64,000 nt of DNA from Mactra quadrangularis (taxonomy: Eukaryota > Mollusca > Bivalvia > Venerida > Mactridae), in assembly GCA_025267735.1 (NCBI GenBank), contig CM046304.1:16554001-16618000 (forward strand), in the 5' to 3' direction. Below are positions 5,855 through 53,894 of the stretch, one piece after another. The notes under the pieces are model-generated. The model saw only the letters and a program-made list of their open reading frames with translations. It did no database searches and was not told where the DNA came from. Position numbers and translations under genes: made by a program. The stretch's first letter is position 1. Each line of letters opens with the position of its first letter.

Positions 5855-5959
5855 CTAAGTTGAAAACCGTACGAAAGGTTTACTGTCCCGAAACTCTGAG
5901 TACTCTTGCTGCTTAGGAGATAGAAACGGTGAGGGTGGCCCATGCCTGATAACCCCAGC
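5855..5959 (-). CDS. Exon 20, terminal coding exon
   Basis: 105 nt: acceptor CATATTTTTCTAG, phase-0 entry matching exon 19, then 34 codons and TAG at 5855-5857. Reads AGVIRHGPPSPFLSPKQQEY and SEFRDSKPFVRFST. It is locally GC-richer than its surroundings, as the other exons are. It lies 6.4 kb from exon 19, so a further phase-0 exon in between cannot be excluded. No CaaX at the end. Confidence 0.75.
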   Translation of the reverse strand, partial: AGVIRHGPPSPFLSPKQQEYSEFRDSKPFVRFST

Positions 5960-8900: not shown

Positions 8901-11900
8901 AGTACTAGCTTATCCTTCTATGAGGAGATGACAACTTCTTCCTCCATAAAGAAAATTTGATATCAAACAAACTTTTTTGTAATAGTATTACCAGTCGGGC
9001 CAGAACTCAACCCAAATGGTATGACAATAAAATTTACTGCTCCATCAAAACATAACACTTTTGATACAAAGCTGGCAAATTGAAAATCCTTGGAATATCA
9101 AAAGATCAATATCAATTTAGCAAAATACTTATCTAGCCATACAAAACTAACATTGTTGTTAAAACAGTGGTGATAACAGTCAAAATTTGGCAGTGAAGAA
9201 AATAGATCATAGATTGAAATAGGGGTTTATATTTAGACAAATTTCAAAATGCAAGAACTAAACAAACTCTTATTCTAGAGTTCTGGGTTATATTAAAGGA
9301 CTAGTATCACCCATGTAAAATAAGGTTCTTAACTCACAACATTAAGTATATAAATCCTTCATAAAATAGTTTACCACTATTTTTTCATCATCTATTACAC
9401 AGCAAAAGTACTCAAAGCAGGCATAGTAAAGCAAATATTGTATAACAAATGTATAACACTTTATAAAAGTTGATATTTTCATATTTTTATATTTTTTACT
9501 AAATGTAGTATAAATTTATTTTTAAAAATATATTTGAAAATTTCAACTTTTACAATTCAAATTAGTTGTCAAATTAGTTATTGCATCTTCTAAATGTATC
9601 AGAACAAGCTGTGACAATGTTAAGCTGTATACATCTCAGTATTTGTGAGTACATTTCAATGGTTCAGGGCAAAATTAGTCTAATCATATATGAATAAAGC
9701 ATGATGTAGACTTGTTTTGCACTGACCTACTGATTTGTATTATAATTTTCATAACATAACAATTAAACAAGAGCTAAAACAAAAGACATTCTGCTTTCTT
9801 CTTCCAGTATGTGTCAACAATAAGGCAATAGCAAATAAAGTCACAGATTCTCGTCCCTGCTTGCACAGCAAAATTTGCTATGTCTGAATGTTTTTTTTTT
9901 GTTTTGAAAAAAGTGCGAAAAAACTCTTATTTAATGTTGATAAATGCCAGGTTAAGGTAATGTACTTGAACCAACAGGGTATTGAACCCAAAAACCCTGA
10001 ATTCTTAGTCAGCAGGGAACCAGCTGAGCTAACGGGGCAGACTAGTATATACATCTTGGTATTGAACCCATAACACTTGAATTTTTAGTCAGCAGGGAAC
10101 CAGCTGAGCTAACGGGGCAGACTAGTATATACATCTGGGTATTGAACCCATAACACCTGAATTCTTGGTCAGCAGGGAACCAGCTGAGCTAACGGGGCAG
10201 ACTAGTATATACATCTGGGTATTGAACCCATAACCCCTGAATTCTTGGTCAGCAGGGAACCAGCTGAGCTAACGGGGCAGACTAGTATATACATCTGGGT
10301 ATTGAACTCATAACCCCTGAATTCTTGGTCAGCAGGGAACCAGCTGAGCTAATGGGGCAGACTAGTATATACATCTGGGTATTGAACCCATAACCCCTGA
10401 ATTCTTGGTCAGCAGGGAACCAGCTGAGCTAACAGGGCAGACTAGTATATACAGAAAAGAATGAACTATTCAATGTCACAATGTGTAAACAGAAACAAAC
10501 ATTGAAAATAACCAATAATTTAACATATAAATATTTACATGCAAAATATCATGCTAATTTAAAAAATATTTCTTTTTATAAAACAATTTCTTTACCAAAA
10601 CAGTGATTACTGGAAAATTATAACCTATAACAACAAAGATGTATAATTATCCCTTTTACATTTTGCACAAAAGATCTAACGTAATTATAAAGTACTATAC
10701 TTGCCTAATATTCATATTTGACATTACAAATGTGAGGAAAATTGACATTATTGTCAAATTTTCATGGAAGGGTATAACCTCCCTGGGTGGGATTCGAACC
10801 CGTACGCCCACGAGATTCCAAATCTTGCCACGCTACCAACTACGCTATCGACCTGGGTAGGGTCAACTTGAAATTGATATTGTTACTTATAAGCTTTTAG
10901 CTCTCTAAAAACATGTATCCTTTGAGGAACATAATAGAATTTAAAGTTGTTCTGGGCTCCCCAAACACAATAGAAATGAAATATTTACACTAATTGACAG
11001 TAGACTTACAATATTACACTAGTTTGTATAAAATCAAGGGAGTTAACTCTGTATATTAGACTGTAGCACACTTTAAATAAGTTTATGATGATTTATCTCC
11101 CTTTAGTAAGTATTGGAGCTAGGGAAACTTAAGTATTTCCATTCATTTTGTCTACTAAGAATTTTACAGTTGAAATCAAGGGAACTTATGCAGTTATGTT
11201 TTTGAATCAAGTATTTCCTCCAAGGAAAGAAAAACATAAATGAATAAAAAACTCAATGAAATTTGAACTTGACATAAAATAATTTATCAAAACCTCAAAC
11301 TACAGAAACTATATACTGGTAATCGATTAAAGTGCCTTTCATAGCAGACAATCAAATTGCTATTTAAAGGTTATTGCCAATTTGTGGATTAAACATCAAA
11401 AAAGAATTGATATAATCAAAGATAAATTTGTTTTGGCTAGTAACCCCAAACAAAAAAAGAAAATTTTCATATTCTGTTAAAAAGAAAAGAAAATTTTCTT
11501 TAAAAATGATACTGACAACAGATGCAAGCAAAACATTTTGTGTAATACAAATGTAATTTACAATTGGAAAATCAAAAAACTAAAATTTTACATAATTTTA
11601 CATAAATAAAAAAACAAAAATGCATATGACAGTGCTGTACATGTAACAAGACTTGACATTTCAACTTGTATATAATATAGTTTGCTTCATATTCATGCAA
11701 CAATAGAGGCTAATCACCTGTATGTACAATATATGTCAATATTTATCATATACGATAATATGACCACCCTATAAACATAATCATCAAAATTTTTATGCAG
11801 TTACATGATAATCTAGTATAGAATATTTTTATGTTATTATGTTATATTTATGTTTTCAATACTATAAGTGTTTAAATAAGTGATTTAATGGCAACAACAT

Positions 11901-14900
11901 TTGATATTTCATTAACATGAAAATAATATACTTAGTTCTTGATTTTATAGTTTCAAATTGCCTAGAAAAAGGAAAAACATAGTTGCAAATGGCGCAAAAA
12001 GGCGAAATTATTTGTCAATGCATGCCTCTGCATACCACTGCTGCAAACATACATTTTCAAGGTTATTGATAGAAAAGCAAGGTTTTTTTAGTGAAATTCA
12101 AGGAATCTTTTCAGCATTTTTCAAGGTAACCCTAAATTCAAGGACTTTTCAAGCCAGAACTTGTTTTCAAGGACTTTCAAGGCTCTGTATGAACAATGAA
12201 AGGACTATATCAGATGGATAAAATTTTCAATATCTAAAATCAGTATTAGTGCTTCAAGTCAATCAATAGTACCGAGACAACTGCAACCGTTAAAATTGAA
12301 AATCGTAAAATCCCAGCATGCATTTGTATCAAACATAACCATTCCTAACCATCAAATATTTTCTTCCTATTTTATATACATTGTATACAAGGTGTAACGT
12401 TAAAGACTTACACTTTTATTGGCTATAGCTCCACTACCTCGTATGTTACCACTGCCGGATGGACCTTTGTATTTTCTAAGTGGAGCACTTCCAATTCTTG
12501 TTGCTGAACCACCAGCATAGGGTTGACCTGTAATTATAAAACCATGTATCAATGTAAAATATGAATAGGAACTGAAGCACTGTCTAAAGAAGAATTTATC
12601 CGTTTGAAAACATTTTTTAAGGAAGTTGAAATACAAAGCAATAAGTTTATACTTTATCTAGCTGTATATCTTTCATGTTTCTATTGATTTAACAGTATTT
12701 AGTATGACAGGAAAGTTCCGCTATTAAGACCACTTTTGTTATTTCAAAATCACGCGATTTTTGACAATTATTAAGACCCAAATGTCTAAATTGTGAAGAA
12801 AAAGGTCCCTACAATAAGACCATTTCACTATGACCATTGATTTTGCTGGTCTTAATAGCAGAACTTTACTGTACATGTAAATGCCATTTTATATTACAAT
12901 TAAATTAAAAACACAATCATTTCTACTTACAGCGATGTAAAACATGTCTTTTCTTTGGTTAACATAGAAGTTACTTTTAAATTCTTGAAAACTGAAACTT
13001 TGGACAAGTTATTTTCTTGTGTCCAAATTTTCAGTTTTCAGACATAGAAGTGCTACAACCAAGTGTAACAGGTCAATTTTGTCTCAATGGCAAGTTTTCC
13101 ACTATGTACTAAACTAAAATATCCCATTACTTTTTTATGCCCATCTTCTCCCTTCCTAAAGTTGTTTTTAGCATGATTTTTTTTGTATATCTAGACCAAA
13201 CTTTCCCTCAAAGGCCAATTTTTACACTTTCAATAAAACAGTTGTTGTACAATGTTATTTGGTACCCAAAATGGACCAAAGAAAAACAGGAAAAGCTACA
13301 TACCAACCAACCAATGGAAAAGCTGACTTCCATAAACCCCCCAAATTATTTTTTTGGGGGAAGGGGAGGGGGGTATAACTAATGAACTTTAAAAATAATT
13401 ACCTGGTACAGGATCTGGTCTAGTTGATTGAACTCTAGATTGTCTATTTACGCTACTATTATCATTACCATAAGCAAATGGTCTTGGTTGACCTGTATGT
13501 GGATGAGTACCTTGAGATGGGCTAGAACCATGGGGATGTTTCTGTGCACTCAATGATGGTGGTGACTGCTTTTCTCTGTAAACAACATGACAATAATAAT
13601 ATAAACATTTTAAAAGTTAACAAGAGCTCCGCTGGGCGGGGCATTATACGCCCGTGTGCAGTCCATGCTGTGTTCTATCTCATATGAAGTCCCTGTGACC
13701 TTGACCAATGACCCTGGGATCTCAGAATAGGTCCCATCCTTAACTGGAGGGCTATCCAAAGCAAAGATTTTGAGAACCTAGGTACAGCCATGGTTGAGTT
13801 ATCACCGACACAAAGTTTTCCCATACAAACTTCCAGTGATCTTGACCCTGGGGCCTCAGAACCAAAAGTTCTCGCCCTTGACCCAAAGAGTATTGATACA
13901 TAAAATTTGGTGATCTTAGGTAAAGTTGGTTGTTGGACAAGGTTTTTCCTCATGATTTTTCTTGTGACTTTGACCTTTAACCCAGGGACCTAAAACCAAA
14001 GGGGCATATGCTAGACATTAAGGCTCCCCTTAAATAAAATTTGGAAAACCTACAATGTAGGTACAATCATTATTGAGTTACTGTCCCGAAAATGTTTCAA
14101 TATGAATTAAGTCCCTGTGACCTTGACTTTTGACCCTGGGGTCTCCAAATCAAAAGAGAACATCCAATACCAAAGAGCTATCAACACATTACATATTAAG
14201 TTATTGTCTGGACAAGGATTGTCCACATGATGCCCCTGTGACCTCAATCTTTGACCCAGTTTTGACCCAAAACCAATTGGGAACATCCTTGACACATGGG
14301 CTACCCTCACATAAAATTTGGTGAACTAAATTCATGTTACTTATTAAATATAGCATTATTTCCATGGTTTGCCATTTTGACTTTGTTAACATATTGATTG
14401 AACATTTGAAGTCACTGCTTGGTAATTTGATATCTTCTGGATGATGGTTTAAACTTGACCTAGGGGCCCCAAAACCAATAGGGAACATTCTTGACACATG
14501 GGCTACTCTCACATGAATTTGGTGAACTTAGGTGCAGTCATTGTTGATTTACTACACGGACAATGTTTTTCAATATGATGCCCCTGTGACCTTGACCTTT
14601 GACCCAGGGGCCCCAAAACCAATAGGACATAACCATGACACATGGGCTACTCTCACATAAAATTTAGTGAACCTAGGTACATTGGTTGTTCAGTTATTGT
14701 CTGGACAAAAGTTTCATTGTTTGCCATTTTGACTTTATTAACATATTGATAGAACATTTGAAGTCACTGCTTGGTAATTTCATATCTTCTGGTTAAAGGT
14801 TTAAACTTGACCCTGTTTCCCAAAAACTGATAAGGCACATCCTTGACACATGGGCTACTCTCACATGAAATTTGGTGAACCTAGGTACAGTCATTGTTGA

Positions 14901-17900
14901 GTAATTACCCGGACAATGTTTTTCAATATGATGCCCCTGTGACCTTGACCTTGGACCCAGGGGCCCCAAAACCAATAGAGCATAACCTTGACACTTCCGC
15001 TACTCTCATGTAAAATTTAGTGAACCTAGGTACATTGGTTGTTCAGTTATTGTCTGGACAAGGTTTTTCCATATGATGCCTCTGTGACCTTGACCTTTGG
15101 GTCTGGGGCCCCAAAACCTATTGGGAACATCCTTGACACAAGGGCTACATTCACATAAAATTTTGTGAACCTAGGTACAGTCGTTGATGAGTAATTGTCC
15201 AAACAATGTTTTTCAATATGATGCCCCTGTGACCTTGACCTTTGACCCAGGAGCCCCAAAACCAATAGGGCATATCCTTGACACAAGGGCTACCCTGACA
15301 TAGAATTTGATGAACCTAGGTACATTGGTGGTTCAGTAATTGTCTGGACAAGTGTTTCATTGTTTGCCATTTTGACTTTATTAACATATTGATAGAACAT
15401 TTGAAGTCACTGCTTGGTAATTTGATATCTTCTGGTTGAAGGTTTAAACTTGACCCTGTTTCCCAAAAACTGATAAGACACATCCTTGACACATGGGCTA
15501 CTCTCACATGAAATTTGGTGAACTCAGGTGCAGTCATTGTTGATTTACTACACGGACAATGTTTTTCAATATGATGCCCCTGTGACCTTGACCTTTGACC
15601 CAGGGGCCCCAAAACCAATAGAGCATAACCTTGACACTTCCGCTACTCTCACGTAAAATTTAGTGAACCTAGGTACATTGGTTGTTCAGTTATTGTCTGG
15701 ACAAGGTTTTTCCATATGATGCCTCTGTGACCTTGACCTTTGGGTCTGGGGCCCCAAAACCTATTGGGAACATCCTTGACACAAGGGCTACATTCACATA
15801 AAATTTTGTGAACCTAGGTACAGTCGTTGGTGAGTAATTGTCCAAACAAGGTTTTTCAATATGATGCCCCTGTGACCTTGACCTTTGACCCAGGAGCCCC
15901 AAAACCAATAGGGCATAACCTTTACCCAAGGGCTACTCTCACATAAAATTTGGAGAACCTAGGTACATTGGTGGTTCAGTTATTGTCTGGACAAAGGTTT
16001 CATTGTTTGCCATTTTGACTTTATAAACATATTGATAGAACATTTGAAGTCACAGCTTGGTAATTTGATATCTTCTGGTTTTAGATTTAAATTTAACCCT
16101 GTTTTCCCAAAACTGGTAAGGTACATCCTTGACACATGGGCTACTCTCACATGAAATTTGGTGAACCTAGGTACAGTCATTAGTGAGTTATTACCCGGAC
16201 AATGTTTTTCAATATGATGCCACTGTGACCTTGACCTTTGACCCAGGGGCCCCAAAATCAATAGTGCATATCCTTGACACATGGGCTACTCTCACATGAA
16301 ATTTGGTGAACCTAGGTACATTGGTGCTTCATTTATTGTCCGGACAAAGTTTTTCCATATAATGCCCCTGTGACCTTGACCTTTGAACCTGGGGCCCCAT
16401 AAACCTATATGGCGCATCTTTGACACATGGGCTACTCTTACATAAAATTTGGTGAACCTAGGTACAGGCGTTGTTGAGTTATGGTCCGGACAAGGTTTTT
16501 CAATTTGATGTCCCTGTGACCTTGACCTTTGATCCAGGGGCCCCAAAACCGATTGGGAACATCCTTGACACATGGGCTTCTCTCACATAAAATTTGGTGA
16601 TCCTAGGTAGATTGGTTGTTAAGTTATTGTCAGGACAAGTTTTTTCCCCCATATGATGCCACTGTGACCTTGACCTTTGACGCAGGGGCCCCAAAACCGA
16701 TAGGGAACATCTTTGACACATGGGCTACTCTTACATTAAATTTGGTGAACTTAGGTACATTGGTGGTTCAGATATTGTCCGGACAAGTTTTACCTATTTT
16801 AAGTCCCAGTGACCTTGACCTTTAACCCTGGGGTCTCAAAATCAATAGGGAACCTCCTCCACCCAAGGGCTATCAACACATAAAATTTGAGGAACCTAGG
16901 TTCATCCTTTCTTGAGTTATCATCCGGACAAGCAATTGTCCACGGACGGACAGACGGACAGACGGACAGACGGACAGACGGACAGACGGACAACAGCATA
17001 ACATAATACGACCGTTTTTTCAAAACGGGCGTATAAAAACAGTTTGGTTTAAAGACAGCTTCCATATGCATGTTTAGTTGACTTTACTATTTTGCACAAT
17101 TATTTTAAACCTCTGATCATTGAAATCACTCTCACAAAGTTACACCTGGGTTGAGTGGAACAACTGTATGTTAATTTCTTAGTCAAGGAAATAAGCAGTT
17201 GCTCTAGTAGGCTCAAACCCATGACCATTGATTTTGATTCCTTGACAATCCTACCACTGGAACACTGGTTTCTTCAGGTGGTTTTATATTGGCTCCACTT
17301 TTTTGGCCTTTTATGGTTGTACTGTCAAGGGGCAACAAACAGCAGCAACCCTAACAATAAATATGTGATAAATGCACAAGTGAAAGTTGGCAATTTAGGA
17401 TTTTAGCAAATTTTCACCAATGGTAATATCAGGGGTTTAATTTCTCAAAATGTTGACTTCAACACAGACTATATGCATGTTATAATGTCATTATCTAACT
17501 TAAAGATATAAAATAAAAGAGCATACAAAATCTAACTCAAAGATAAGAAATGAAAGAAAAGAGCATATAATATGATATATTATCATAATTACCTTCTAAG
17601 ATAAACAGGTTCTGGCTTTGGTTCATTTAGATTTACATTCATCTCAGTTAAAACAGCATCTTGGGTAGTAACAGGGTTTCCAGTTTCTAGTACTATATAA
17701 AATATACAAAAAAGTTGCAATGAAATATATAGCTAAAAATACTCAAATAATTGCATTGAAATATATAGCTGAAAATACTCAAATAATTGCATTGAAATAT
17801 ATAGCTAAAAATACCCAAATAATTGCATTGAAATAAACAGCCAAACACTGTAAAATAGATGCTTTCTGGAACAAATTTGAGAGTTTTACCCACACTAAAG

Positions 17901-20900
17901 AGATAGTTAATTATTCTTACTAAATTGTGCGATAAAGTACATATTCTATAAGTAAATAATGATACTGATATGATTTAAGCCTCATTTTTTTATTTGAGTA
18001 TCAATGCCATTGTAACACATTGTATTGGATATATCATGGTGGTCAGTCAAACTACTCGCCATTCCTGGAAAGGCTAAATTATATTTAGTTGATAACCAGT
18101 TACAAGACAAATACCTCCATTGATGGACACTTGCCATACTTGATTTAGATATACTTGATAAGAGGAAGAATGGCTGTTATTTCACAACCAAGCTCCATGA
18201 AGGTATGCCCCGTCTGGATTTTGAACCTACAACCCCTCTATCAGCGTGCTATATCGACTGAGCTAGCACAAAATCAACTATACCTGGTTGTTCTATAGGT
18301 GAACCACTTGTACTTAATTCTTCATATGGATTCTTTGTAAATCTATGAGCAGCAGTCATCCATGCTATAGCCTGGAAAAAATTTAAACAAATACTGAAAT
18401 GAAATATTTTACATTAAAATTAATGCGCTAATAAATATTCTCTAAACAGGTTTGTGACTTAAAGTCCCATTATCAAAAGTAACACTGTTTTTGACTGCAA
18501 AGTAAAAGGACATTTATCTATTTCAAACACCTCTATTGAACAAGAATTTTTTAATTAAATGCAAATAGAGCTCAAATATGTTTGTTATTTTAGAATGAAA
18601 CAGAAAGTAGAATTTTGTTGTCAATACTTAAAACAATATCTTTTATCACAGCATGTTTTAGATGAAGTCTATTATAGAAAAAACTTTTTCAAAATTACAG
18701 ATGTAAGGTCTAAATCTATTGTGGATTAGGTATACTGAACACTAGCGTATAAATGATAATAGTGTGCTCTTATAAAAGTATCCCACTTTTTTAAGAAATG
18801 GACACTTAGTCAAACTCAAATTTAGAAAGTAGAATGGTTTGATAAGTTTATTGTGTACATGTTACATTTTGATAACTTCATTGTTGTAAAATAGTTTCAA
18901 GTCCACTGCAGATGAATATATCTTCATATAGTGGCTTTAATCCATGTATTGTAACTAACTGATAATAGGCTTTGAAATTAGACAAATTTCAGAAGTTGAC
19001 TGAACAAAATCTGTGAGCCCGAATCAAATTTCTTAGGTCCCAAGTAATTTTTTTTTTAACGGGTTTTAACACCATGTCAACACAATTTAGGTCATTTTAT
19101 GACGTCCAGCGCACCTAACCTAGCTTTCCTTGACCCTTGTCTATAACCAGTCCTCACCTTCCCTTCCACAAGGCCGGAAACTTCTCCATTTTATCTAATC
19201 ATTGGAGGAAAATTGACATTATTGTCAAACTTTCATGGAAGGGTATAACCTCCCCGGGTGGGATTCAAACCCCTAACCCCTTCGGGACACGAGATTCCAA
19301 ATCCCGTCGCGCTACCAACTGTGCTATCGCTATAAAGTACTTGTAAGCAGACTAAATACCAAAATTTTATATTTGTAACAACATAAAAACCTACCTGTCC
19401 ATTAGGTTTACATAATATTGTGGTACATTCAGGACCGGTTCCCCACTTCTGTTGTTCTTTCCAAACAAAATCTTTAGGTGGTTGATGTTCAATGGGGTCC
19501 TGGGAACCAGACCATACAGTAATGGTAGATTCAGCATTAAACTTGGTACGTGGTGGGAACCGGAATACAGCCACTGGATGTCCCCCAACATTCTGTTGTA
19601 TCATGTAGCCACCAAACTCCACCTCCTGTAGTAGAGAGTTCATTTACACATTAATAGAAAGTTTAACAAATCATCAAAAGTTTTGAGACAAAAGAAATTT
19701 ACAACAATTCTTGAATTTTGATGATTATTTTTCAAGAATCATTATTTTGTCATAAATTTAAGTTTAGTATATCAGATTCAGCATCTGACATCCTAAAGCC
19801 TCCCAAACCATGTTTATGTAAATTATTTCCCATAACATGGCTTTTATGCTATTTTTGAAGTCTCAGTTATAATTATAATGATAATCAAAAAAAGCAAAAC
19901 CAAAAAGCATTAATTTTCAAAATAAACAGATATCAAATTTTAAACAAAAGCTACATATATATTAAGTGGGCCTAATAAGTAAAAATGTCTCCAAACTTGA
20001 TGGGTACAAAGTCACCGTACAATATATTTACAATGAAATCATGACACCTCAGACGCTTAATAAAAATTCTAATGTTATAAGTCTGTAAATTTTTCCCAGG
20101 ACTATATTTCATTCAAGTGCCACATTCAATAAAGATCTATAAGATCAAAATGTTCCAAATCTATATGTCTTAGACCTGCCCTTGACGTCTTTGAAATAAG
20201 TAACAATAATGCCTAAGATCAATATTATATATGGCACCTGATGTCTAAAATGACCCCAAGTTTTTGTTTTTGTTGGGTTTAACACCTTAGCAACACATTG
20301 TATAGGTCATATAACGGAGGTCAGTCAACCTACTCACTCCTCCTGGAAAGGCTAAATCTCTGGATTTGACTGTTAACCAACTACTAAGCACATACTTTCG
20401 TCAGTGACTGACAACTGCCCTACATAATTAAAAATCATTGGTTGGAGATAGAATGGCCGTAGAAATAACTTCATGACCAAACTCCACAAAAGTATGCCCT
20501 ACCGGGAATCAAACTCATGAAAAATCATTGGTAGGAGACAGAATGGCAGTAGAAATAATAAAATCTGACATAATTGTATGGACTTCATATCATTGAATAT
20601 TTTTAGAATAAAATGCCTATTACAAGACCAGCCAAGTTTCAAACAAGCCAAAACTTACTGTTTACTTAACTTTAAACTATACTTTCAATTTTTAATGATT
20701 TTTCTGATCCAACAAATGAAATTTATATTGAACAGAATAAATTGATTTTCCAGAAAATTTATTAGAAATAACGGTGTTATGTAAATATAGGAAAGCTGTC
20801 AGGTATTGTTGATTATAATTTAATTAGTTACCCTATTGAACACTAATATAGGTTTCTATTTAGCTTTGACTTTTTGGCATGAACCATGACTAAAGTATTA

Positions 20901-23900
20901 AAACATTGAAAGTTGAAAATATCAAAGTGCTGAAAGCACTGAAAGAAAAATATATAATGACAGGTCTGTTACACATTTTTGAAAAAAATTTTATATTAAG
21001 CAAACATAACAGCCGGTAGCATGTTCAATTACACTAATCGTTACAGAACGTTACGTAACGATACATTCGGAACTCCTCAGCCATTCGCTGCGAATAATCT
21101 CGAACACATTCAGACGCTATTTTGAAACTACCCGTGTTGAAGTAAACAAATATATGATCGTTTAGGCAATGAGTGATGTTTCGTTTTTAGTCCGTTAATT
21201 TTGAAACATCACTCATTGACTTAACTATCGCATATTTGTTTAATAGATTAAATTATTCGCAGCGAATGGCCGAAGAGTTCCGAATGTATTGTTACGTAAC
21301 GTTCTGTAACGTTTAGTGTAATTGAACACGCTACTGTTATATGCTTGAGGACAAATGATCACATTTATTAAATATATACAACACCCCTGTTCTTATGACA
21401 ATTCTTTTTGGTTATGCTTCAATTCTAATCCTTATAAAATGACACACTTTTGGATATATACAGCATTGTTTATAAATTGTTTCATAGAATTCAAATAGTG
21501 ATCTAAACAGAGCAATAAAACAAATTGAATTATACATTTTTTATAACAGTGAATGCAACAGACACACTGTTATATTACTTGGCAAAATATTTCTTTATTT
21601 TCTCCTAATATTTGGGGTGTTTCCGAACTAGAACCATGTGGGTCAGTTTAGCTAAAATATATTAGTGTTAAAATATGCATTTACTGCTGAGAAGATACTA
21701 GAGCTTGTTATTGTGCAACATTAGTATAATTCTATTAAAAAGATATCCTAACTGCCTTAGAATGTTGAAAAGACAAGAAGCGACCAATGAAAATGTTTTA
21801 TTTCAGCAAGTACAACATATAACAAATCTAAAAATAGCTGAGTGATTCCCTCAGTATCCTACTTTTGTTTTCAACAATGTGTATGCCACATGTTTTAATT
21901 CGTTCAGTTGAATGTTATAAGTGACAAATGTTATTAATAAGTGATTTCTTACGTTCTTAATACTGTTTTAAAGACTTAACTGTAATGTGTCTATAAATTT
22001 GGCACAGTCATTTGCCTGTATATCCCTTTAATGTTAAAGCAGAACTCTAAAATCTGCATACAGTCAGATATCGATACAACGACATCGTTTGTTTCCAAGA
22101 AAGGTGTCGTTATAACGCATATGTCAGTGTAATGAATACTTCCGACCATGTACATGTTGGTATTGGTTCCCATAAAATATGTCAGTATAATGAGAATGTC
22201 GTTGTAACGGATGTCGTTGTATCGAGATCTGACTGTATAGTATCTGATAGGACATTAAATGAATCCAATTATCTAGTCTAATATAGTCATCCACATATTT
22301 TTAAGTTTAACAACAGCCATTTCATCCCTTTGAATATGAATTTTTACAAGCAATGATTGTCACAGACCTGCCAAAAAATTTTTTCAATCAGTGCTTTCAG
22401 CACTTTGATTACCCTTGTACAATGAAGTGATATATTGTGGGTTTAGCGCGAAACAGTTGTAACTCACTCTTTTCTTATATTGAGTTACAACTGTTTAGCA
22501 CTAAACCCGCAATATATGTTATACTAACAAGCTAAATAACTAACTCTAAATTAAGTATATAGAATATAATAGTAAACAAATTGAAAAGAAGATGTCATAC
22601 AAAAAAATTTGGGGCGTCTAAAAATGTAAGCCAATTCTTAACTGGTATTCAAAATGTGAAAAAGCAATAAAATTTAATCACATACTGCAAACAGTATCAC
22701 TTGGGCGTAAGCAAAAATATTGATAACAGACCATTCAAAATAATAATAATATAACTAAATTATCTTACCTGTTTTCCTTCGTTGAATAGTCGTATAAACT
22801 TTCCATCTTGATTGACTTCTAGAATTTTGATGTCACCAACAGCACTGCCAGCAAAACCCATTGCATTAATATATTGTATTATACAAACAGTAAATCAACA
22901 ATAAAAAAACAAGATCACTAACTTAAAGTTCCGATAAATCTAATTATACACATGTAAATCAATACATTAACTTTAAAGTTACAATATATTGATTTGGTAT
23001 TTTCCTTTCAAATCCAGTGATACGATACAATACAATATCAACTCTAAGCGGAAATGTTTGTTTTTTCTCTAAATAGTTTTTTTAGTCATTAAAGACACTT
23101 AGTAGAACACTGCAACATAATTTACATATTATAATATATTATATCAAATGTTGAAATTATTCGATAATTCACTAATTAGATTTAGTTCTTTCATATTAAT
23201 TTTAATAATTTGAGGGTTGCCTGCAAGACTGTAGTAAGTGCATTGCGTTAAAGAGCGAGTTACTACAGTCTTGTGGACAACCCTCGTTATGTATTGATGG
23301 GCTAGCACAAAATTTAAAGTCTTACTCTTAATTACTTGTAAATAAACTATAAATGGAAACTCAAATTAATGTGAGAAAAGTGCAATTTTTCAGAGATCCT
23401 AATGGATTATCAGCTGAATATAAGAAGGATTCCAATCCCAAGTTTTTAGGATCCAATGAATCCTGGGACACAGTCGAACCCCTATGTACATGTAGATTTA
23501 ATCAAGTTAAAATTGTGACAATTTCCAAACTGATTATAAGTAAATAATGTTTAACTTCAATTTTGTTTAGATTTAACTAATAAAACTACTCAAGTATTAA
23601 AATGAGTGTGCCATGTATACTTATTTCAGATAACACACGACTGACATTCATATTTCAGATAACAATTTACAATAGTCAATTTAACTTCAAATGCGACCAA
23701 ACGTAATGTAAAGAATAAATTAAAATATTTGATAAAGAAAGAAAACATTTCTGTTTTCAAAGCTTTAAAATGATTGTTCAAATTACGAACCCTAGATTTT
23801 ATTGGATTTGTTTGTGTTTATTTATACTTAATGCAAAGAATGGCTATACAGATTTCTTGTTTAATTTCAAACAAAAAATCCAATCATAAAACCCAAGTGA

Positions 23901-26900: not shown

Positions 26901-29900
26901 ATAAGGGACATTAGTCAGTTATCCTCCCTTGATAAAGTATAAAGCGATCCAAATGGCAAGTAGGTCCTATCAGTTGGAATCCTTTATCATTGAAATCTTC
27001 TGTATGTAAGGATAATAAAATATAATCACAATAAAATATTTTTCTTGTTATTTAAGATATCATCAAGAGTGAAAAAATTACATAGTTCTTCAACAAAACA
27101 ATACTTCGCTTGATTTTCAAACAAATTAGATTATTTACAAAAAAAGGCATTTTAGATTGATTGTGTCAAATTGACATTAAAAAGTACAATGTGAGGGGAA
27201 AATCCAAGTTATCCAACTGATTGGACCTAGCTATTTGAAAAGTATGCAAAGGGAAAAAATAACAAGTAAATCTGTGAGCTAATGCTCACTAGTGATACCC
27301 CCGCCAAAATCTAAAAATATGCGACAAACAGGAAGTAGATGAGCAAGGAGCATGAAATCGCTTTACACCATATGGGACTATGGGATGAAGCAATATGCAA
27401 AGTATTAGGCTGCTGCATGATATAGTTGCTGAGAAAACTGCGACGGAAATTTTGTAACGGACGGACGCACGGACAAGGGTAAAACAGTATACCCCCCTCT
27501 TCTTCGAAGCGGGGGTATAATAACTGACAAAGTCCCTTAGAGCCACTAGGGTTTAAAACCAGGTTCAAGGGTTCACCAACCTCACACTAGCCCCAACAGG
27601 TTCATATAAGAACAAACAATAACAAAATTATCTCTGTGAAAAAAAACATAACCTTTACAAAAGATATAACTTACCTAGATGTGGAAGTAGTATAATCATG
27701 GAATACTGAGCTAGTAGGACGGTCAGGACGAGAATAGTGTATTGGTTCAGTGGTCATTTCTTGTCTTTCATGTGCTGTATAACTCTCTGACCTATCAGTG
27801 GTCTTAACACCATCATCATTTTGAAATTGTACCAAATTCTCCAAACTGAAATATCATAGACAACACAATTTTTTTTTACTATTGTAACAGTCTTCAATGA
27901 AAATCTAAAACCATTCATTGTAATGAACTATAGTTTGAAAATAAAAGTGTCTGGTTCCTGCCTATTCTTAGTTAAATTCATCAATTTCCAACCTTATTTT
28001 TTGGCTAAATACTGCTTCTCAACCATAGAAAAATAATGTCATACATGAACAGTAGAAACCTTAATAAGATTTTAACAATTTTTTAGAATATATTTTTAAA
28101 AAATCATGAAAAAAATAACAAGTCAACACAATGAAAGCAGCTGGCACACCTAAAATAGCTTCCTTTTCTGTAAATAGTACTCACCAACCCTTCCACAACA
28201 CTGGCAATTTCTCCATATACCTTAATAATGACCATTATTGTCAAATATTGAAAGGGTATGACCACCCAAGGTGAAATTTGAACACTAACCCTTTGTTACA
28301 CTAGATTAGCAATCCCAGTGTACCTACCCATGAGTGGAAGAAAAATCTGAGAAAACTTGTTCATTTTAAAACAATAGACAAATATACTTACAATTCTCCT
28401 CTAGGGTTGTCATTTCTACTGGATGGTCTCTCAACATTACTTGGTTGTTCTTTCAACTTGCCACTAGGTGGACGTTCAGTAGGACTACTCTTTGGTCTTG
28501 TTTGTGTATATAATGTTTCTCTAGTTAAATCACGGAACATTTCATCAAAGTAATCTTTACCTTGACCTAATTGTGTAGGTACGACTTGAACAGATGATCC
28601 TGGTCGCACTGTAATAATATACATGTATTTAGTAAAACCTAAGTCTTGATATATACAACCACAGGCTGCCAGATTGAAAGGGTACCTACTTCACATGTAT
28701 ATATGTCTATAATTATATTCTAAACGATAATTTTATTCTTTTTGGGAGGGGGGGGTCTCTTTCACGCCAGCAGCCTGAGCATAGAAAATTGACAAGTATT
28801 AGCATTTCCAAAAATGCTTGAAATCTCCGTTTAGCAGTGTATTCTCCTTAGAGTAAAAACATTCAAGCAATATGCATCAGCGTTTTAAACCATCCCATGT
28901 CTATTCATAAAATACAAGAATGATCGTGCCCTGTTAACGATATGTAAAACCATTGAATCTATTTATAGAATACCAGGAATTAGCGTGCCCTGGTAACAAT
29001 ATGTAAAACCATTGATTTAGATTTGCCCAAACGTAGGGAAGATAGGTTTTCATTTATTCAACAAATGTAAGTTTTTAAAAGAAAAAAACATGTTACAATT
29101 AGTTATGCATATTTTCTGGTGTTATTTTGCAACTTTCTTGAAACTGGTACTCGTTCATACATTGATAACAGTATTTTCTGGTAATACAAATAGTTAATCC
29201 AACAAAACATGGCATTGACGAGTCTATACACGCATCCCTATTTTGACTGTTCGGCGTACATTTTTTCATTGTGACCTCAAATGCATTGTTTTGCAACCAG
29301 TGTTGACACAAAAATGCTTAAATCTTGATAATTGTTATTATCGCCGCCCGGGGGACGATAATAAAACTGACCAAAATCAAAGTACTGATAGCGCTTACTA
29401 ACATGTAACATGAAAAAGGTTGGTAAATTGTGTAGTGTTCAACATGGTAGAATATTTTACAAGACTTTAAGTTTTGTATGTGAATTATTCATAATGAAAA
29501 AGGTAAATGTTTTACAGTAACATACTGTTACAGTATTAAGTCTTTTTGATTCAGTTCCTGATAAAATCATGACTGCTTCCAGAAAACAATTGGGACCTAC
29601 TTCTTTGTTCCTGTGTATGGTATATTGTAAACTTTACATGCAATATTACCTGGAGCAGATTTAGCTCTTGTAATTGGACCAATAGCTCTAGGTGACATTC
29701 TAGTAGGTGAATCAATCTGTAATCTGTTTAAACTAGGTGATGTTTCATATGTATACTTTGTTGTTGTACCTATATAATCTATAGGCTCTGAAATTATATA
29801 CATCAATTATATTGTAATAGTCAAACATAAATAAAACATTGTATAATTATATGACTATTACATGATTATTTTCAAAAGAGGGTAAATAGACTGTGTCTGC

Positions 29901-32900
29901 AATTCAAATATTTGACAAATATATGAGTACAAAAAACAATAGGAATGAATCTGTATTTTGTGCTTTTCAGCAATAATGTGAAACAAACTTTGTATGCACC
30001 GCCTGCCTTTGGATGGAAAACCTACAAATTTGAGTTCCGAATTAGGTTTATTAACACTCACAGAAAAGTTAGCAAAAAATAAATCAAACACCATAATTAA
30101 TAGCATCAGAATTTCTTTTTTTACATCAGATTTTCCCAAACTATTTAGACAGTGCTTGTTGTTCATGCACTGTGATTAGGAAATTGTTAAAAAATTGCCA
30201 GATGAATATTATGATAAATAAAGATCAGTGCATCTTTTCACAAAAATTCTTATGTAAAAAGTTATCGTAAATCAATTTCATGAATTATTGCAGTTCAAAG
30301 TCAGAAAGATAATAACACAACTATGCTATAATATTCAAATTATCTACAAGATTCAATAACATTTGGAATTACTTAAGATGATTTTATAGTAAGATTTTTC
30401 GTGAAAGCGCCACAGTTGAACATGACCTGAACTGTGAGCTTGTCAGTAATAAAATAAGTGAGAATGCATGGATAAGTTAAGACCAGATTGAAAAAGAACA
30501 TAGTTACCTTGTTCCGAGACACTGGGTAGAGTACATCTAGTAAACGTTGGTTCTGGCTGTAAAGAGGGTTCACCGCTCTCTAAGAATGTAGAACATTGAA
30601 ATGTAGACTCAGTAGTAGTTATAGGTTGTGTTGCCATGGTAACAATATACTCAGGTTGTTGTTGTTGTAGTGTGCTAGATAAGGAGACATCAGGTAAAGT
30701 CAGTGGTACATTGGTACTGTATGTTAATGGTTGCTGATGTGAGGAAGGCGACAATGGTAACTGTAGTCTGAAAATATACAAACAACAAGAAATGTAATGT
30801 GAAAAACCACATTAAAGCCAGTTTTAAAAACTTAATCGCAAAAATTACAAAGGGCAATAATTCATAATAAAGCCAGGTACATGTAGAGTTGTGGTTACTG
30901 TCTTATACTGTTGATAACATGGTATGTTATCATTGTATGAAGTTTCATAAAGATCTGACAATAAATGGCAGAGATATATGCTCAATTGAAAATTTTAATG
31001 CAATTGTTCAAGACACCGGATGCCCGCCCAACTGCCTGCCTACCACCCCACCCTTGTTTGGCCAAAGTATAAGCCGGATTTTTTCGTTAAAAAAATACGG
31101 CCAATAAAAAGATATTACAAGACAGCATTCAGAACTCCTCAGCCATTCACTATGAAGAACCTCAAACATATTCCGGTATTTAGAAGCCATTTTGAAACTA
31201 CCTTCGCATCACATGGCCATGCAAAATCAGTGTTCAAGAAAACATATCTCATGATCCTTCAGTCCATGACTTTGAAATACATGATTCAATTAAATTGTTA
31301 AACAATATTAGGTCACATAAAAAACATAAATTTGTTTTTAAGTTTGTGTCCTCAAACTTTTCATGAGTCATTGGTTCATGAATAGTTTAAGAACATTAAG
31401 AACAAGGCACAGTCATGAACTTAAAGTAATTTTTGCCATTTTATCTTATAAACATTTCATCAAGTGTTCATGAACTAAAGTAAATAGTTCATCAACTATG
31501 CCTGTGTTTGGAAAGGTCACTTAATAGGCATGGCCATAGAGGAATAATTGCTACATGAAGACAAAATATTCAATGTAAAAAAGATAATTTCTTTTGATTG
31601 AATTCTAGATAGAAGCCTCCCTCATCAAAATGGGGGTCCCAAAACTGAAATAAAGGAAGGAAGAGTTGTGGTTACTTTCTTATTCTGGTATGTTATTATT
31701 GCATGAAGATCTGACAATAAATGGCAGAAATATGTGGAAAAGAAAAACATTAACACAATTGTTAACGACACCGGACACCTGCTTGCCCACCTGCCACCCT
31801 GTGTTTTGCCAAACTATTAAAAAATTTCGCCTAAAAAAAATGGGGTCATTTTAGCTAACAGAATACTGCATATATAAAAGAACATAATTTTCATCCTCTG
31901 TTACGTACTAGTACTTGAAAAGTATAATCAATTTTAATTACAATGAGTGTTTACGTTGACTCAAAACATGAAATATAATTTTATTATTATTTAGTATTAT
32001 TTTCTATAAGCTATTCTATTGATTAAATTAGTTATTGTACGATTATATTGAACTGTCCGATTGCATAAATTAAAACGTCACATAACACTGTATATTTAAT
32101 GCTCGGATATCGTCGGTAGTTCACGTAGAGCTCATAACACAGATGTGTCATATTTGACTTTTAATGATTATCTCGGTTTGTGTGGTCGAGTGGTAAAACG
32201 GTCAGTGAGCAAACCTTTTTGTCGTGGGTTCGAATCCCGATAGAATTTTTTTTATTTTTTTCTTCCTTTTATTATTGTCGGATTGCGCAAAACACAATAA
32301 TGTTTCAAAGTTTATTTTAACAAATTATAAATTTTGTCGATTTCCCTTCAAGAGAATATAACAGTAGCGGAACTGACACTGCCAGTGAAACTAAATGACT
32401 TTTTTAATTATTAGTTTTATAGTATTTCAACATTTCTATTTCCAAAAGACACTGAATAAAACAAAACACAATTTTCAGAAAATAAAAAAGATGCTAACAA
32501 TGCGAAGAAAAAAAGTGAAAAATGACATCCTTAGATTCAATCTAGCAACCGGCATTTCAAAAGTATAAGTTGTGTAGCGTTTCACTTAAACCGCACGACT
32601 ATTCAGTCATGTTAGATTTTGACACTAAATTAACTTATCTATTGTATTTTTACTGCAAAATTCTATAAATAGAGCGCGGAAATTAATATATGCAGTGTGT
32701 GATAACCGTGTAATTATGCAATCGGACAGTTCAATATAATCGTACAATAGCCAACTATTGCTTATACTGTCCGAAGTCAATGTGCACAAGCTATAACAAT
32801 AACATTATTAATTTATCATTGCCATTTGCCTACAAGTTGTTCATGTACCCTCACTTTAATTAAGAGTAACAATTACTTCCATCAATTATTAATGAAAACA

Positions 32901-41900: not shown

Positions 41901-44900
41901 GAAAAGCAAAAGCTATAAGTATAAATGAAATGGCTACCAATTGGCAGATTTTAATTAATATCAAGCAAAACGGTTGGCCAATTTCAATTTTAGTAATCAT
42001 AACAGCCCATCAAATATCTACACCAGTTTTCATGACAAACTTTCTCAGCACTGGACATTCGGTCCAGCAAAATGGAAATGTATACTGGACTGAATAAAAG
42101 TTTGCTGCACAAAAAAAAGTGTTTTGTTAAAATATGTAGTGCAATAAATAATTTCAATATTTAATATAACAACAAATTATGATTTATTTCTAATTATGAA
42201 AATGATGACTGCAAAGAGTAGGTGCACCATTGCACAACACGCATTCTAAGCCACTGGATTGATGGTGAGTACGATGGTCTAGGGCGGTCCACTGTCCAAA
42301 GGCTAAATTCAAAGACAAATCAACACTATAGATTGTACAAACATCAAAACACTGTTTATATAAACAATACAATGAACTAATCCACAACAGGGGATGCTCA
42401 GTATGACAATAAAAAATATTATTTTGATATGTTTTATGAATGTTTTGTTGGAATAATAGTAAAGGGTTCTACCATTACAAGCATGATTGACCAAGGGGTG
42501 GTGGTTTATCCGCCACACTAATTTTGTATAAATGAACTATAAAACTTTTATTTTCAATACTGCCTACCTCTGGAACGGATTGGTTCATTTAATGTTTACA
42601 CAAACATGTTTCATTATTTTGTACAAACTATATATCAATGTATAAAGGTACCTACCTCTTTTCTTCTTCTTCAAGTAACATCTTCATAGCTTCAATTTCA
42701 GCTTTTAAAGGTAAATGTAGGTCTCGTTCTGAGTTAGCTTCACGCATCTTAGTGAATACTAGCTCTTGCATATCACGAAGTTTTTTATCCATTTCTTGTA
42801 TCTGTGCGGTTGATTTAACTCTTTCTTGTCTAATCAAATCTTCTACAGTGCTTCTTTGATGTTCTAAAGTCATTATCTGAAATAATGATAAAAACCAGAA
42901 ATGTACAGTGAAAACCACATTAAGGCCAGATTTAAGAACTTTAACGCAAAAAAAGGAAATAATCCATAATAAAGCCAGATAGAGTTGCGGTTACTTTCTA
43001 ATTCTGTTCATCACATAGAATGTTATCATGATAGTATGAAGTTTCGTAAAGATCTGACAATAAATGGCAGAAATATATGCTTAATTGAAAACTTTAGCAC
43101 AATTATTAACAACACTGGACGTCTGCCCAACGACCCACCTGTGTTTTGCCATGTTATCTGTAGTAAAGCTCTATTACTAATATTACCTGTCCTTCCAGAT
43201 TTCTTATTTTAGCATGAAGTTCACCAATTTGACCCTGTAGTTTAGATTTATCACTTGATAATCTTTCTATAGTTGAAGCATCATTATCCATCTGACATTT
43301 TAATGCTGACAGCTGAAATTATAAATAAATACTTCATTTATTTACTCATTATTTCATCTTCCATAAAAACCCAATTTTATCTTACCACAATTGTGCAGGG
43401 CCTCAACCTTTAAGGCCATCCTATTTCCACTGACAACTAATATTTGGTTTCAAGCAACTTGCTATTGCAAAAAAACACTTGGTTCTGTCAAGTGAAATTA
43501 ATAGCAGGTTGTTCAACTTGGCTAATTAACCTACTTTTAAAACGAAAATTGAGCCCTGTTGTGAACAACTTGCATTTACCTTTCTTATCTTTTACTCCTG
43601 ATACCAAGGACGTGTCAGTCACAAGGGTGAAATTTCAAAATGTTTTTTTAAATCTATCCTGAAAATGCTGATTTTCATGTCTTCAGGATCTCATACATAA
43701 GATAAGAATCCTTTAGTTTTCTCAGGTTTCCCCAACATAACAAATTATGAATTTATTTTTCAGAATATGCAAAAGATGTTGGTTTTATTTGAAAGAACTG
43801 CACATATGAATCTGTAAATTAAATAGAATAATTCATTACAAAGCAACTAGCATTCTCGTACCCTGAGGTTATCAAGATTCTCGATCTATCGAGAATCTTG
43901 AAAGCCTCTAAGAACGAGAATGAGCAACTAGTCACTTATTGAACATGGGTGGATATCTTTTTCATTTTTGGAGTAATATACCTGATTACGTATGTATATA
44001 TTGTGTCTAGGTCTAGAAACAATACTGACTATAATTATATGATTAAAAACAGTCAAATATTTCAATATAAAAACTTACATTTCTGTTATAATTTTCCTCT
44101 GATTCCATCTGATACCTCTTTAATTCAAACTGAGCTTGTTCTCTCACTTGTTTTAATATATCAGGTATAGCTACATCATTCTTAGCCATCTGTCCAAGAC
44201 GTGATTCCAAGCTGATCACTGTACATTGGCTCTGTTCCAATCTTTCCTTGAGTTCAGCTAATTGTTGAGCATGTACTTGTTCATTAAATTCTAGTTTCTT
44301 AGTAAGAGAATGACATCTGTCATCAGCCTCAGTGCGTAGTAAAGATTCTTGTTCAGCTCTGTGAATAGATACAAACAATGAATGCATTATAGTATATTAA
44401 ACGCAATATTTCATATGGCAAGCTCTTGGAGGACCCATGGCTGGTAACTAAAGGTCATGGCCTGTGCCTGACAACCTATATTTGGGTTTGGGCAACTTGT
44501 TACTGCTAATAAACATTAAGTTTAAGCAAGTGTAACATAATATGGTTGAAAATTAATTTCAAGCCCAGCATAATCTTCTTTTACCCAAACATGACAAAAT
44601 ATATCCGAAACCAAAATCATAAAATGTGAGTTTCATGAAAATGACACAAAAATGGCAGAAAATGGACAGCTTCACCTACCTTCTCTTATGTTCCTCATTT
44701 TCACGTATAATTTTATCCATCTCTCGTTGTAAATGCATGAAGTCTGATCTACCATCGCCAGCTTGTCTTAGATTCATAAGTTCATTTTCTAGACCGTTTG
44801 ATTTATGTTGTAATTGATTTAAATCATCAATCAATCTATGATTCTTGTCAATTTCTGCTGCCAATCTATAATAGAAGAACAATTCAAATGTACATGTATA

Positions 44901-47900
44901 TTCTAATGTGCCCCAAAAAAGTTGTTGGAAAAATGAAATTTTTTATTTACATTAGTTTTTACTAATTTAACTCGATCAAGAACAAGTTTTTAAAACTTAG
45001 ATTTATAATCACTTTTCACTCTGATTCCTGGTCTCTAAGTACTGAGCTAGCAGGATAAAGTTTATTCCTCAAGGAAACAATGGGGTAGATTTTGGATGGG
45101 ATTTGAACCAACAGAAGTTGCTATCCAATGATTACCAGTCCAACTTTGTAATAATTTGGCCTGCTAAAAAACAATTCTAATAAACAGTGCCCTTCAAAAG
45201 TTGAGCAAATGAAATTTTGAGCAAACCATTATTTTACAATAATTAATGCTTTATTATGGATCAAAGTCAATCTCCGTACACATATATCCAGTAGAGCATT
45301 GTTGTACAGGATCTCTACTGTTTCCGTCGAAGGTCACGTCGAGATGAACTTTGTGTCGACCAATCAATGCATAGCTTTCATCAAGACGAAACACTATTAA
45401 TCACATTTTGATTTCGTAATTTCTATTTTTTAGACCAAGGTTTGCAAGCTTATTTAACAGCGGTATAATTCACAGTCTGCGATTGGACGGCTCATTTCAA
45501 ATTGCGTGACGTAGACGATGTAAACAAGTTACGTATCATAACAATATCATCATGAATATTATGATGAGAAAGGTCACCTGAACGTGACCTTTGTTTGAGA
45601 AAGGCCAGATCTAAATTAGCGAGTAGGCGAGAGGAAAATTTTAGATCTGGTTTTAATCAGATTGGATCAAAGCTTAAATCACAATCATGTTAACTAGATT
45701 TTGGAATTTACTTAGATTTCTCTTAGGTTGACCGTCAAACCTACTCACATTCTAAAGACATTGGACCAATGGCAATTTCGTTGGTTCGAAGTCCACAGGC
45801 TAAATTCAAAGACTGACTGACACACAAAGTATCTTACCTTGTCTCAAAATCAATGGCAGCTGACTTATTTTTCTCACATTGTAATTGATAATTACTTTTT
45901 TCTCTATTTGAAGCATTCAATTCTTGTCTGAAATAATACAGTAAAAGGTTAAAAAAAATCGGGAATCTTCAAATTAAAAATTCTTATCATAAAAGGACCA
46001 TAAAATACTATAACAGGAATTCAAATATTTGGGTTTTCCCTGCAGTATCAACAAACAAGAATCGTTACAATAAATATGTGTGGACAAAGAACAATAGGAT
46101 TTTGTGCTTTAACAATATAAAATAATGTGTATAACATTTTGTTTGAACTGTCTGTGCATGGATAGAAACACCCATAAATTGGAGTTTCAAATAAGGTCTA
46201 TTAAAGCAAACACATGCCGAAAAGTAGCAAGATTGAGAATTGTATGGCTGATAACAAAGAAGACCCAGGTCTGTAGAGTATCAGGATTTTGAATCTAGTA
46301 TCCCCAAGGGAGAAAGGGTTCTAATCCCATCAAGGGCCATTAAACCCTTCCAAGAAAATTTGATAGTAATGTTTTGGTTTTTTTTCCCATTAATATGGTA
46401 TGAGGAGAAGTTGCCTGCCTTGTGGAAAGATAGGGGAGTACTGGTTTTAGATAAGTGCCAAGGAAAGCTAGGTTATGTGCACTGGCAGCTGTAAAATAAC
46501 CTTAACTGAAATGACATTAAATCTAGTATAATAAAAAAAACCAATGATTTGAAATTCTTACCTGATAACATCAAGTTCCCTCTCATATAAAGTTTTTAGA
46601 TTAGCTACTTCTTCCTCAAGTATTCTAGTCTGTTTAACAAATGTACTCGTATCAAGTCTATTATTTTGTTCACTTAAAAGTCGTACTTTCTGAATGTATG
46701 TCGTAAATCTATCATTCAGTAGCTGTAAATCTTGCTTTTCTTGTTTCCTTGCCGATGAAATCGGGGAAATTACATCAGTCGTGTAATAACTCATATTTCC
46801 TGCCTTAGTTTCACCTCTGTTTTCAGAATTGTATGTATTTGGTGTTGCTAGTTGGATATTCTTATCCCTAGCAACTAAAGAAGCATTTCTGTCAGGGGAG
46901 CTAACTGCTGAGCCAGGATGAGATAATTGTTGATCCTGGTAAGAAACACTAGATTTACTTGGCGATATACGAATTGTTTCTTGATTACTACCGTACCCGG
47001 AATCTAATCGTGTCGATGCACTCCTTGTATCTCGATCAGTTTTGACCTCTCCAGACTTCTGACCTATATTTCGGCTCGACTCTTTAATATTAAAACCAGT
47101 CTGAGTTAAAGGGCCATTAGGGGCTGTCTTTACATAAAATACTGTTTTTTCGTACGGATGTTTCGGTGAATTCCCTTTTTCGTCAAGATATTTATGAGAT
47201 GATACAAATTGTTTTCTATAAGTTTCTTTGCGTTCTGATGGTTGACCTGTGGTTGAAGGTGTAAGTGGGAAGTCTGTCTGCTGGGCTATATCAACTGTCT
47301 CCGCAGGATATCTAACTCTTCCAGTAGAGCGATTAGTTTCTGGCTCTTGTTCAGTTGTTATATCTAGAATATTAAAAAAAAGCTAAGATTATTCTAAAAC
47401 TCTTCAAAAGGGAGGTAAAAGCAGAATAAAGAATCAATGGGAATCAATACAGAGCAGTTTAAAAAACAAGTAGACAATAATAATGTACATGAATTTACAA
47501 ACAATAAGATTTTAAGTGTTAGTATTGAAGTAAAGGATGACTATTGGGTCCAAAAATACTATCACAATATAATTGCAATACTTCATTTAGTCACGTTTTG
47601 GCTTTATGCCTTTTTCTAACATGGATACTTATAACAAAATGGAGAAAATTACAGAGTGTAGAATTTTTTGTAATCAACTGGATACTTTACTTGGATAATA
47701 TTGCAATAGTATCAGATGATTACTGGAATCCCTCTAAGTAGAATTGAATTTAACAAGAATGACAGTGAAGCGATTACAGGGATAATTATTTCTACTTTTG
47801 TTTTCAAGAAAACTATAGCAAGCAGTTGATGGTCTGAGAAACTATCATAATATTTATTGACTAGAAAAACTTGTACATGTATCAACCTATTGCTATTGCA

Positions 47901-53894: not shown

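What the first reader, a model, noticed from the sequence alone, without database searches (positions are those of the whole stretch)
5855..53894. LMNTD-type lamin-tail protein that still carries a complete lamin-length rod
The LTD and flanking motifs (CKPNGQAIAW, YLRREK) look like LMNTD1, yet the same frame includes a full IF rod with both consensus ends and the long coil 1B. Vertebrate LMNTD1, as I recall, lacks such a rod and LMNTD2 has only a reduced coiled coil. The head keeps a lamin-like SP site before coil 1A, but CaaX and an evident NLS are absent, and an unusual linker of about 290 residues separates rod and LTD. This could be the ancestral architecture linking lamins to LMNTD proteins.
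Basis: partly seen in the sequence, partly recalled or inferred. Interest (0 to 1): 0.75.

Follow-up and report, generated by a model that had tools for sequence, protein, structure and literature searches.

The report
Clam LMNTD1 that keeps its rod
This is a clam's copy of LMNTD1, a little-studied relative of nuclear lamins that has lost its filament-forming rod in mammals but keeps it in many other animals, a layout largely described in 2015 under the name nematocilin.

Summary
One minus-strand gene of a mactrid-like clam encodes a 363-residue lamin-length rod, a 260-residue linker and a lamin tail domain (LTD). The gene is wider than reported: 5' exons lie at 59803-57113 and the last coding exon lies just outside the window; the spliced product is 90% identical to a Mactra protein over 1,325 residues. 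The architecture is not new: Kollmar 2015 (PMC4448529) described nematocilins with rod, Ig domain and conserved C-terminus, rod lost in fish and mammals. Added here: the sequence-level equation of that family with LMNTD1; a decay series (whole rod in a shark, partial in paddlefish, remnant in a turtle model, none in mouse); and the opposite state in Hydra (rod, no LTD). Nematocilin stiffens a Hydra sensory cilium, and LMNTD1 data lean weakly to cilia and testis, so a cytoplasmic or ciliary filament is the best guess. LMNTD2 was not tested.

The parts
59731..59803 (-). 5' coding exon N1 (KVKAKLKHLMRLKKKALKSSKQE), lysine-rich; an upstream start exon was not located
   Evidence: 88% to Mactra P0001 over 25 aa; boundaries
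57113..57361 (-). 5' coding exon N2 (...KIPEKTKKKLKKWSVLTDQHK)
   Evidence: 66% to Mactra P0001 over 90 columns, E 3.5e-25; phase fits N1 and 48815
   Evidence: compare P0001
48667..48815 (-). head exon (FSNNKELEEQ...)
   Evidence: matches Mactra and Dreissena heads
46562..47363 (-). head, coil 1A and start of coil 1B (LNDR motif)
45838..45927 (-). short coil 1B exon
   Evidence: phase-aware scan; present in Mactra P0001
44680..44865 (-). coil 1B exon
44079..44358 (-). end of coil 1B, L12 and start of coil 2
43187..43312 (-). coil 2 exon
42656..42876 (-). end of coil 2, rod terminus EIEAMKMLLEEEEKR
30508..30767 (-). linker exon
29650..29787 (-). linker exon
28392..28608 (-). linker exon with conserved motif LGQGKDYFDEMFRDL
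   Evidence: loose motif in 61 of 75 proteins; conserved block over 56 aligned proteins
27675..27845 (-). linker exon ending HDYTTSTS
22769..22844 (-). LTD first exon (VGDIKILEVNQDGKFIRLFNEGKQ)
   Evidence: phase-aware scan; Pfam LTD
19395..19625 (-). LTD core exon
18284..18371 (-). LTD end (AIAWMTAAHRF) and start of the C-tail
17593..17692 (-). C-tail exon
13403..13575 (-). C-tail exon (KHPHG, GNDNSS blocks)
   Evidence: conserved blocks
12412..12527 (-). C-tail exon (GSAPLRKY)
5855..5959 (-). last exon inside the window: read-through end FVRFST*, or spliced out at 5873 to a tail exon beyond the window (genome C12:16553928-16553785) that encodes ...PPMPRPPLFSSW*
   Evidence: like endings in other species

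Best explanation
The gene is the clam ortholog of LMNTD1, a member of the ancient 'nematocilin' branch of intermediate-filament proteins, separate from lamins and from ordinary cytoplasmic IFs. It keeps the ancestral layout: head, lamin-length rod, long linker with a short conserved motif (GQGKDYFDxMF), LTD, conserved C-tail. Shown by sequence: gene unity, domain content, separate grouping of rod and LTD. Inferred: the rod pairs as a coiled coil and assembles into a filament, while LTD, linker motif and tail act as docking modules. Without CaaX and without the lamin-type NLS between rod and LTD it probably works outside the lamina, most likely as a stiffening or anchoring filament in cilia, flagella or their bases (about 0.4 for that location; the rest for other cytoplasmic or nuclear sites).
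For: Gene unity: phase-compatible GT-AG joins; 90% identity to one Mactra protein over 1,325 aa; 71 of 75 hits (isoforms of one species counted apart) bear both precomputed Pfam domains; 11 both-domain proteins sit on contigs under 5 kb, too short for such a gene with introns, so presumably transcripts (P0008-P0011, P0022, P0035, P0057; P0197, P0198, P0200, P0206). Family: in the LTD-plus-tail profile search the 120 listed of 239 hits are LMNTD1 (or IF tail domain-containing 1) or carry no specific name; trees; an amphioxus protein with Filament and LTD is already named LMNTD1 (P0222). Role: nematocilin is the rigid core filament of the cnidocil (passages of PMC12464826, and PMC2687796); Hydra P0220 (rod only) falls inside the cnidarian clade, 100/99; LMNTD1 is listed among human testis-specific genes (PMC7436996) and, with SNTN and DZIP1L, among the most reduced genes in dog nasal swabs in which ciliary genes fall (PMC11345268).
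Against: No expression or localisation data for a mollusc ortholog were seen. P0220 was not matched letter by letter to published nematocilin. Mouse Lmntd1 is named for lung endothelial subclusters in PMC10131515, against a purely ciliary role. A lysine-rich N-terminus leaves a nuclear site open. Filament assembly is not shown, and the rod end departs from the usual motif. A bryozoan record has no rod (P0101) and the Pfam scan listed no LTD for Rhopilema P0196, though the precomputed domains and my own LTD model (157 bits) do.
Confidence: 0.85

Rival explanations
1. An ordinary molluscan cytoplasmic IF (rod plus LTD, no NLS, no CaaX) with a stretched linker.
For: Same gross layout: Kollmar 2015 states that protostomian cIFs have rod and Ig domains, and the clam's own C19 cIF has LTD exons.
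Against: The genome holds a clear cIF on C19 (8.90-8.94 Mb) and apparently two divergent relatives (7.03-7.08 Mb) with YRKLLEGEE or YRKLLESEE; the window gene lacks it. Grouping rejected: rod AU p 5e-6, LTD AU p 0.0038; the cIF rows are partial.
Confidence: 0.03
2. A divergent lamin paralog that lost NLS and CaaX.
For: Lamin-length rod, LTD 34% identical to lamin A, SP site before coil 1A.
Against: The clam has a separate lamin on C4 with KRKR before the LTD and a rod 49% identical to lamin A over 273 columns. The nematocilin/LMNTD1 set is one side of a 100/100 branch for rod and LTD. Its tail blocks are shared with LMNTD1.
Confidence: 0.05
3. Two neighbouring genes, an IF and an LMNTD1, joined by the model.
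For: An 11.9 kb intron separates rod and linker and a 4.8 kb one precedes the LTD; no transcript of this species was available; most homologs are gene predictions.
Against: Phases fit; 71 of 75 hits bear both domains; 11 both-domain proteins come from contigs under 5 kb.
Confidence: 0.02
4. Same gene, different job: a nuclear-envelope or chromatin adaptor working through the LTD, with the rod as a dimeriser rather than a filament former.
For: The LTD of the modelled ortholog (Saccoglossus) is closest in fold to lamin LTDs (Foldseek E 4e-15 to 2e-11, 16 chains); lysine-rich N-terminal exons; mammals keep the LTD and lack the rod.
Against: No CaaX or rod-LTD NLS; the Hydra record has the rod and no LTD, hard to reconcile with the LTD being the core function; literature hints lean to cilia and testis.
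Confidence: 0.25

Closest known systems
Nematocilins sensu Kollmar 2015 (PMC4448529; parts 1-3 of 5 of the main text and passages seen; supplement could not be looked up)
   Same: Rod, then Ig/LTD, then a conserved C-terminal region; in eumetazoans except Ecdysozoa and Platyhelminthes; rod said to be lost in fish and mammals
   Different: That paper does not use the names LMNTD or IFLTD; Macrostomum P0063, a flatworm, fits the family here; a shark keeps the whole rod
Vertebrate LMNTD1 / IFLTD1
   Same: Shared linker motif, LTD and C-tail; mouse aligns with Saccoglossus over 286 columns
   Different: The mouse and wallaby records have no rod; turtle model and gar keep coil-2 remnants; paddlefish a sub-threshold rod; shark a whole rod
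Rod-only proteins of Hydra (P0220) and unnamed relatives, presumably nematocilin
   Same: Rod groups with the cnidarian rod+LTD orthologs, 100/99
   Different: No LTD in the records; share no domain with mouse LMNTD1
Nuclear lamins
   Same: Rod length, LTD fold
   Different: NLS between rod and LTD, CaaX and YRKLLEGEE are missing in the window protein; separate branch
Protostome cytoplasmic IFs
   Same: Rod and Ig/LTD (Kollmar's text); long coil 1B and no CaaX (recalled)
   Different: Separate branch; rod end and tail blocks differ

Membership tests
Nematocilin/LMNTD1 | lamin-length rod (ancestral state) | tested here: met
   363 residues, Pfam Filament 3.4e-32
Nematocilin/LMNTD1 | LTD grouping with LMNTD1 | tested here: met
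   100/100 apart from lamins
Nematocilin/LMNTD1 | rod grouping with cnidarian, deuterostome and spiralian orthologs | tested here: met
   100/100 apart from lamins and cIFs
Nematocilin/LMNTD1 | conserved C-terminal region (Kollmar's NTD) | tested here: inconclusive
   Conserved tail blocks exist, but Kollmar's figure S6 was not seen, so that they are his NTD is inferred
Nematocilin/LMNTD1 | filament in a cilium core | not testable with these tools
   needs localisation
Lamin | NLS between rod and LTD | tested here: not met
   no basic cluster between residues 650 and 910 by the patterns
Lamin | C-terminal CaaX | tested here: not met
   the two ends end SSW and FST
Lamin | rod and LTD grouping with lamins | tested here: not met
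Protostome cytoplasmic IF | rod and LTD grouping with the clam's own cIFs | tested here: not met
   AU p 5e-6 (rod, with vimentin in the group) and 0.0038 (LTD)
LMNTD2 | grouping with LMNTD2 | not tested
   no LMNTD2 sequence was obtained

The most novel reading that the evidence does not exclude
Human LMNTD1 and Hydra's cnidocil protein nematocilin are orthologs that share no domain: vertebrates wore away the rod and kept the LTD, hydrozoans kept the rod and dropped the LTD (in scyphozoans perhaps as a splice choice), and the clam gene is an intact rod+LTD form that bridges them. The family is then an ancient third IF lineage devoted to stiffening or anchoring cilia, and nematocilin is not a cnidarian or hydrozoan invention, as passages of PMC12464826 and PMC2687796 have it.
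Probability: 0.4. Interest if true: 0.7.

Novelty: new member of a known kind. Interest (0 to 1): 0.42.

Why it matters
It ties a human gene of unclear function to a filament family whose one studied member sits in a sensory cilium, and shows why the tie is easy to miss: mammals kept one half of the protein and Hydra the other, and databases call many intact forms lamin-B2-like, prelamin-A/C-like or even centrobin. It points to animals (bivalves, with ciliated gills) in which the intact protein can be tested.

Tried and rejected
Rejected: two-gene fusion, ordinary cIF, divergent lamin (see rivals). The AlphaFold model (Saccoglossus P0055, mean pLDDT 66.6, pTM 0.28) gives confident rod helices and LTD but nothing usable on how linker motif and tail pack. 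Ten papers were opened: PMC4448529 in long sections (parts 1-3 of 5) and passages, nine others in passages only; no passage seen reports localisation of LMNTD1. Searches crossing nematocilin, LMNTD, IFLTD1, 'lamin tail domain-containing' and cytovec list no held paper that holds nematocilin together with an LMNTD1 name; that is the ground for saying the equation is not in print in that library.

Limits: the length filter (about 660-2110 aa) keeps most lamins and cIFs out, and the hits listed were 206-554 aa long, so their absence there is no evidence; own-genome genes were used instead. One search listed 120 of 239 hits. For the trees 47 of 225 protein ids held were chosen by hand, plus window, lamin A and vimentin; rods under 250 residues (gar, turtle) and rodless rows went into the LTD tree alone. 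Trichinella's second lamin was dropped. Own-genome lamin and cIF rows are exon pieces; two fill under half of the columns. Deuterostome rows do not form one clade; Macrostomum is a long branch. Two weaker Filament matches under E 0.001 in the genome (C14:41597018, C19:46526940) were not followed up. The Polyodon, Caretta, emu and Rhincodon rows are gene predictions, so part of the decay series may be short isoforms.

Full report
What is there. The window lies in an unnamed 979-Mb genome. Its best relative is a Mactra antiquata protein, so the organism is probably a mactrid clam or close kin. Pfam gives Filament 3.4e-32 and LTD 5.3e-17.

The gene is longer than reported. Searching the window with the Mactra head and tail showed two lysine-rich 5' exons upstream (59803-57113), and the neighbouring 10 kb showed the last coding exon just outside the window. 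The long form, 1,325 residues without its first few, is 90% identical to Mactra over its whole length. A second end, FVRFST*, arises by reading through the splice site at 5873; endings of the same type (LVRFST, LVRFTS, LVRFTA, LIRFSS) occur in an oyster-like unnamed source, scallops, abalone and Elysia, and a similar one (LVRFSAA) in the nemertean Tubulanus, so both ends look old.

Rod. Between the same landmarks the rod has 363 residues, against 358 in lamin A, 310 in vimentin, 362 in Saccoglossus, 364 in the sea urchin and 367 in the shark Stegostoma. The start motif is canonical; the end motif is not (AMKMLLEEEEKR), and the hemichordate, sea urchin and shark orthologs depart from YRKLLEGEE as well.

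Relatives. Of 75 hits (isoforms counted apart), 71 carry both precomputed domains: bivalves, gastropods, Lingula, Owenia, nemerteans, hemichordates, echinoderms, Macrostomum, tunicates and a shark. A search from a cnidarian member (71 hits) adds corals, an anemone, an octocoral, the jellyfish Rhopilema and amphioxus with both domains, and seven rod-only proteins, one of them named, from Hydra vulgaris; two of the seven look like fragments. One search found no LTD in Rhopilema P0196 with Pfam, against the precomputed domain and my own model. A profile of LTD plus tail retrieves vertebrate LMNTD1. Mouse LMNTD1 aligns with Saccoglossus from the linker motif into the tail (286 columns, 35.7%), but with lamin A only over the LTD. 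A bryozoan record named LMNTD1 (Bugula P0101) shows no rod: a short model or a further loss.

Trees. Rod (42 rows) and LTD (45 rows) put the clam with this family apart from lamins at 100/99 and 100/100. The decisive control used the clam's own genome: a lamin on C4, a cytoplasmic IF on C19, and apparently two divergent cIF-like genes on C19. With these added, the family stays one side of a 100/100 branch for rod and LTD. Holding the window gene together with the three clam cIFs and vimentin is rejected for the rod (AU p 5e-6), and with the one cIF LTD for the LTD (AU p 0.0038). Weak points: the own-genome rows are partial, only one molluscan cIF has an LTD row, the trees are rooted by choice, and branching inside the family is unstable.

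Two opposite losses. In vertebrates the rod decays: complete in Stegostoma (Pfam above cut-off), below cut-off in Polyodon, about 98 residues of coil 2 recognised in gar and in a Caretta gene model, none in the mouse, wallaby, emu, frog (Pelobates) and Rhincodon records. Several are gene predictions, and Rhincodon's lack may be a short isoform, since Stegostoma, its neighbour in the LTD tree, has the rod. In Hydra the record has a rod and no LTD. A rod-only protein from an unnamed source (P0205) is 83% identical to Rhopilema P0196 up to the LTD and then ends with a short tail like the Hydra-type ones, which suggests a splice choice that hydrozoans fixed. That last step is inference, and no cnidarian genome was searched for an LTD exon.

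What it does. Nematocilin was placed in the stiff core of Hydra's cnidocil (passages of PMC12464826, and PMC2687796; the original paper was not seen). LMNTD1 is listed among human testis-specific genes (PMC7436996), and dog LMNTD1 falls along with ciliary genes in chronic rhinitis (PMC11345268). Against this, a mouse lung study names Lmntd1 for endothelial subclusters (PMC10131515). My best reading is a cytoplasmic or ciliary filament protein whose linker motif, LTD and tail dock it to partners. Only the anatomy is shown; assembly and site are inferred.

What is known. Kollmar 2015 (PMC4448529; [quoted passage not shown] The names LMNTD and IFLTD do not occur there. Passages of PMC12464826 and PMC2687796 call nematocilin medusozoan- or Hydra-specific.

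Noticed in passing
   Followed up: partly
P0063 Macrostomum lignano: A flatworm protein with rod, GEGRDYF, LTD and PPMPRPP near its end, although Kollmar 2015 reports nematocilins absent from Platyhelminthes (he mentions divergent flatworm lamins that group with them).
   Followed up: partly
Many public names of this family are wrong or empty: lamin-B2-like, prelamin-A/C-like, lamin-L(I)-like, centrobin (Lingula).
   Followed up: no
   Followed up: no
genome C19:7033871-7084653: Apparently two divergent cytoplasmic-IF-like genes near each other, on the contig that also holds an ordinary cIF at 8.90-8.94 Mb.
   Followed up: partly
PMC6609395 (passage): That paper reports no chicken ortholog of Lmntd1, but several birds have annotated LMNTD1 proteins.
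   Followed up: no
window 55937-55659, 33309-32987, 27586-27292 and L003:426 downwards: A dispersed repeat whose minus-strand frames read YPRFEEEGGILFYPCPC.. / IPPLRRRGGYTVLPLS.. occurs at least three times in the window and again beside the lamin gene.
   Followed up: no
window 14363-16932 and 9977-10453: Tandem arrays of about 145 bp and 80 bp units inside introns.
   Followed up: no
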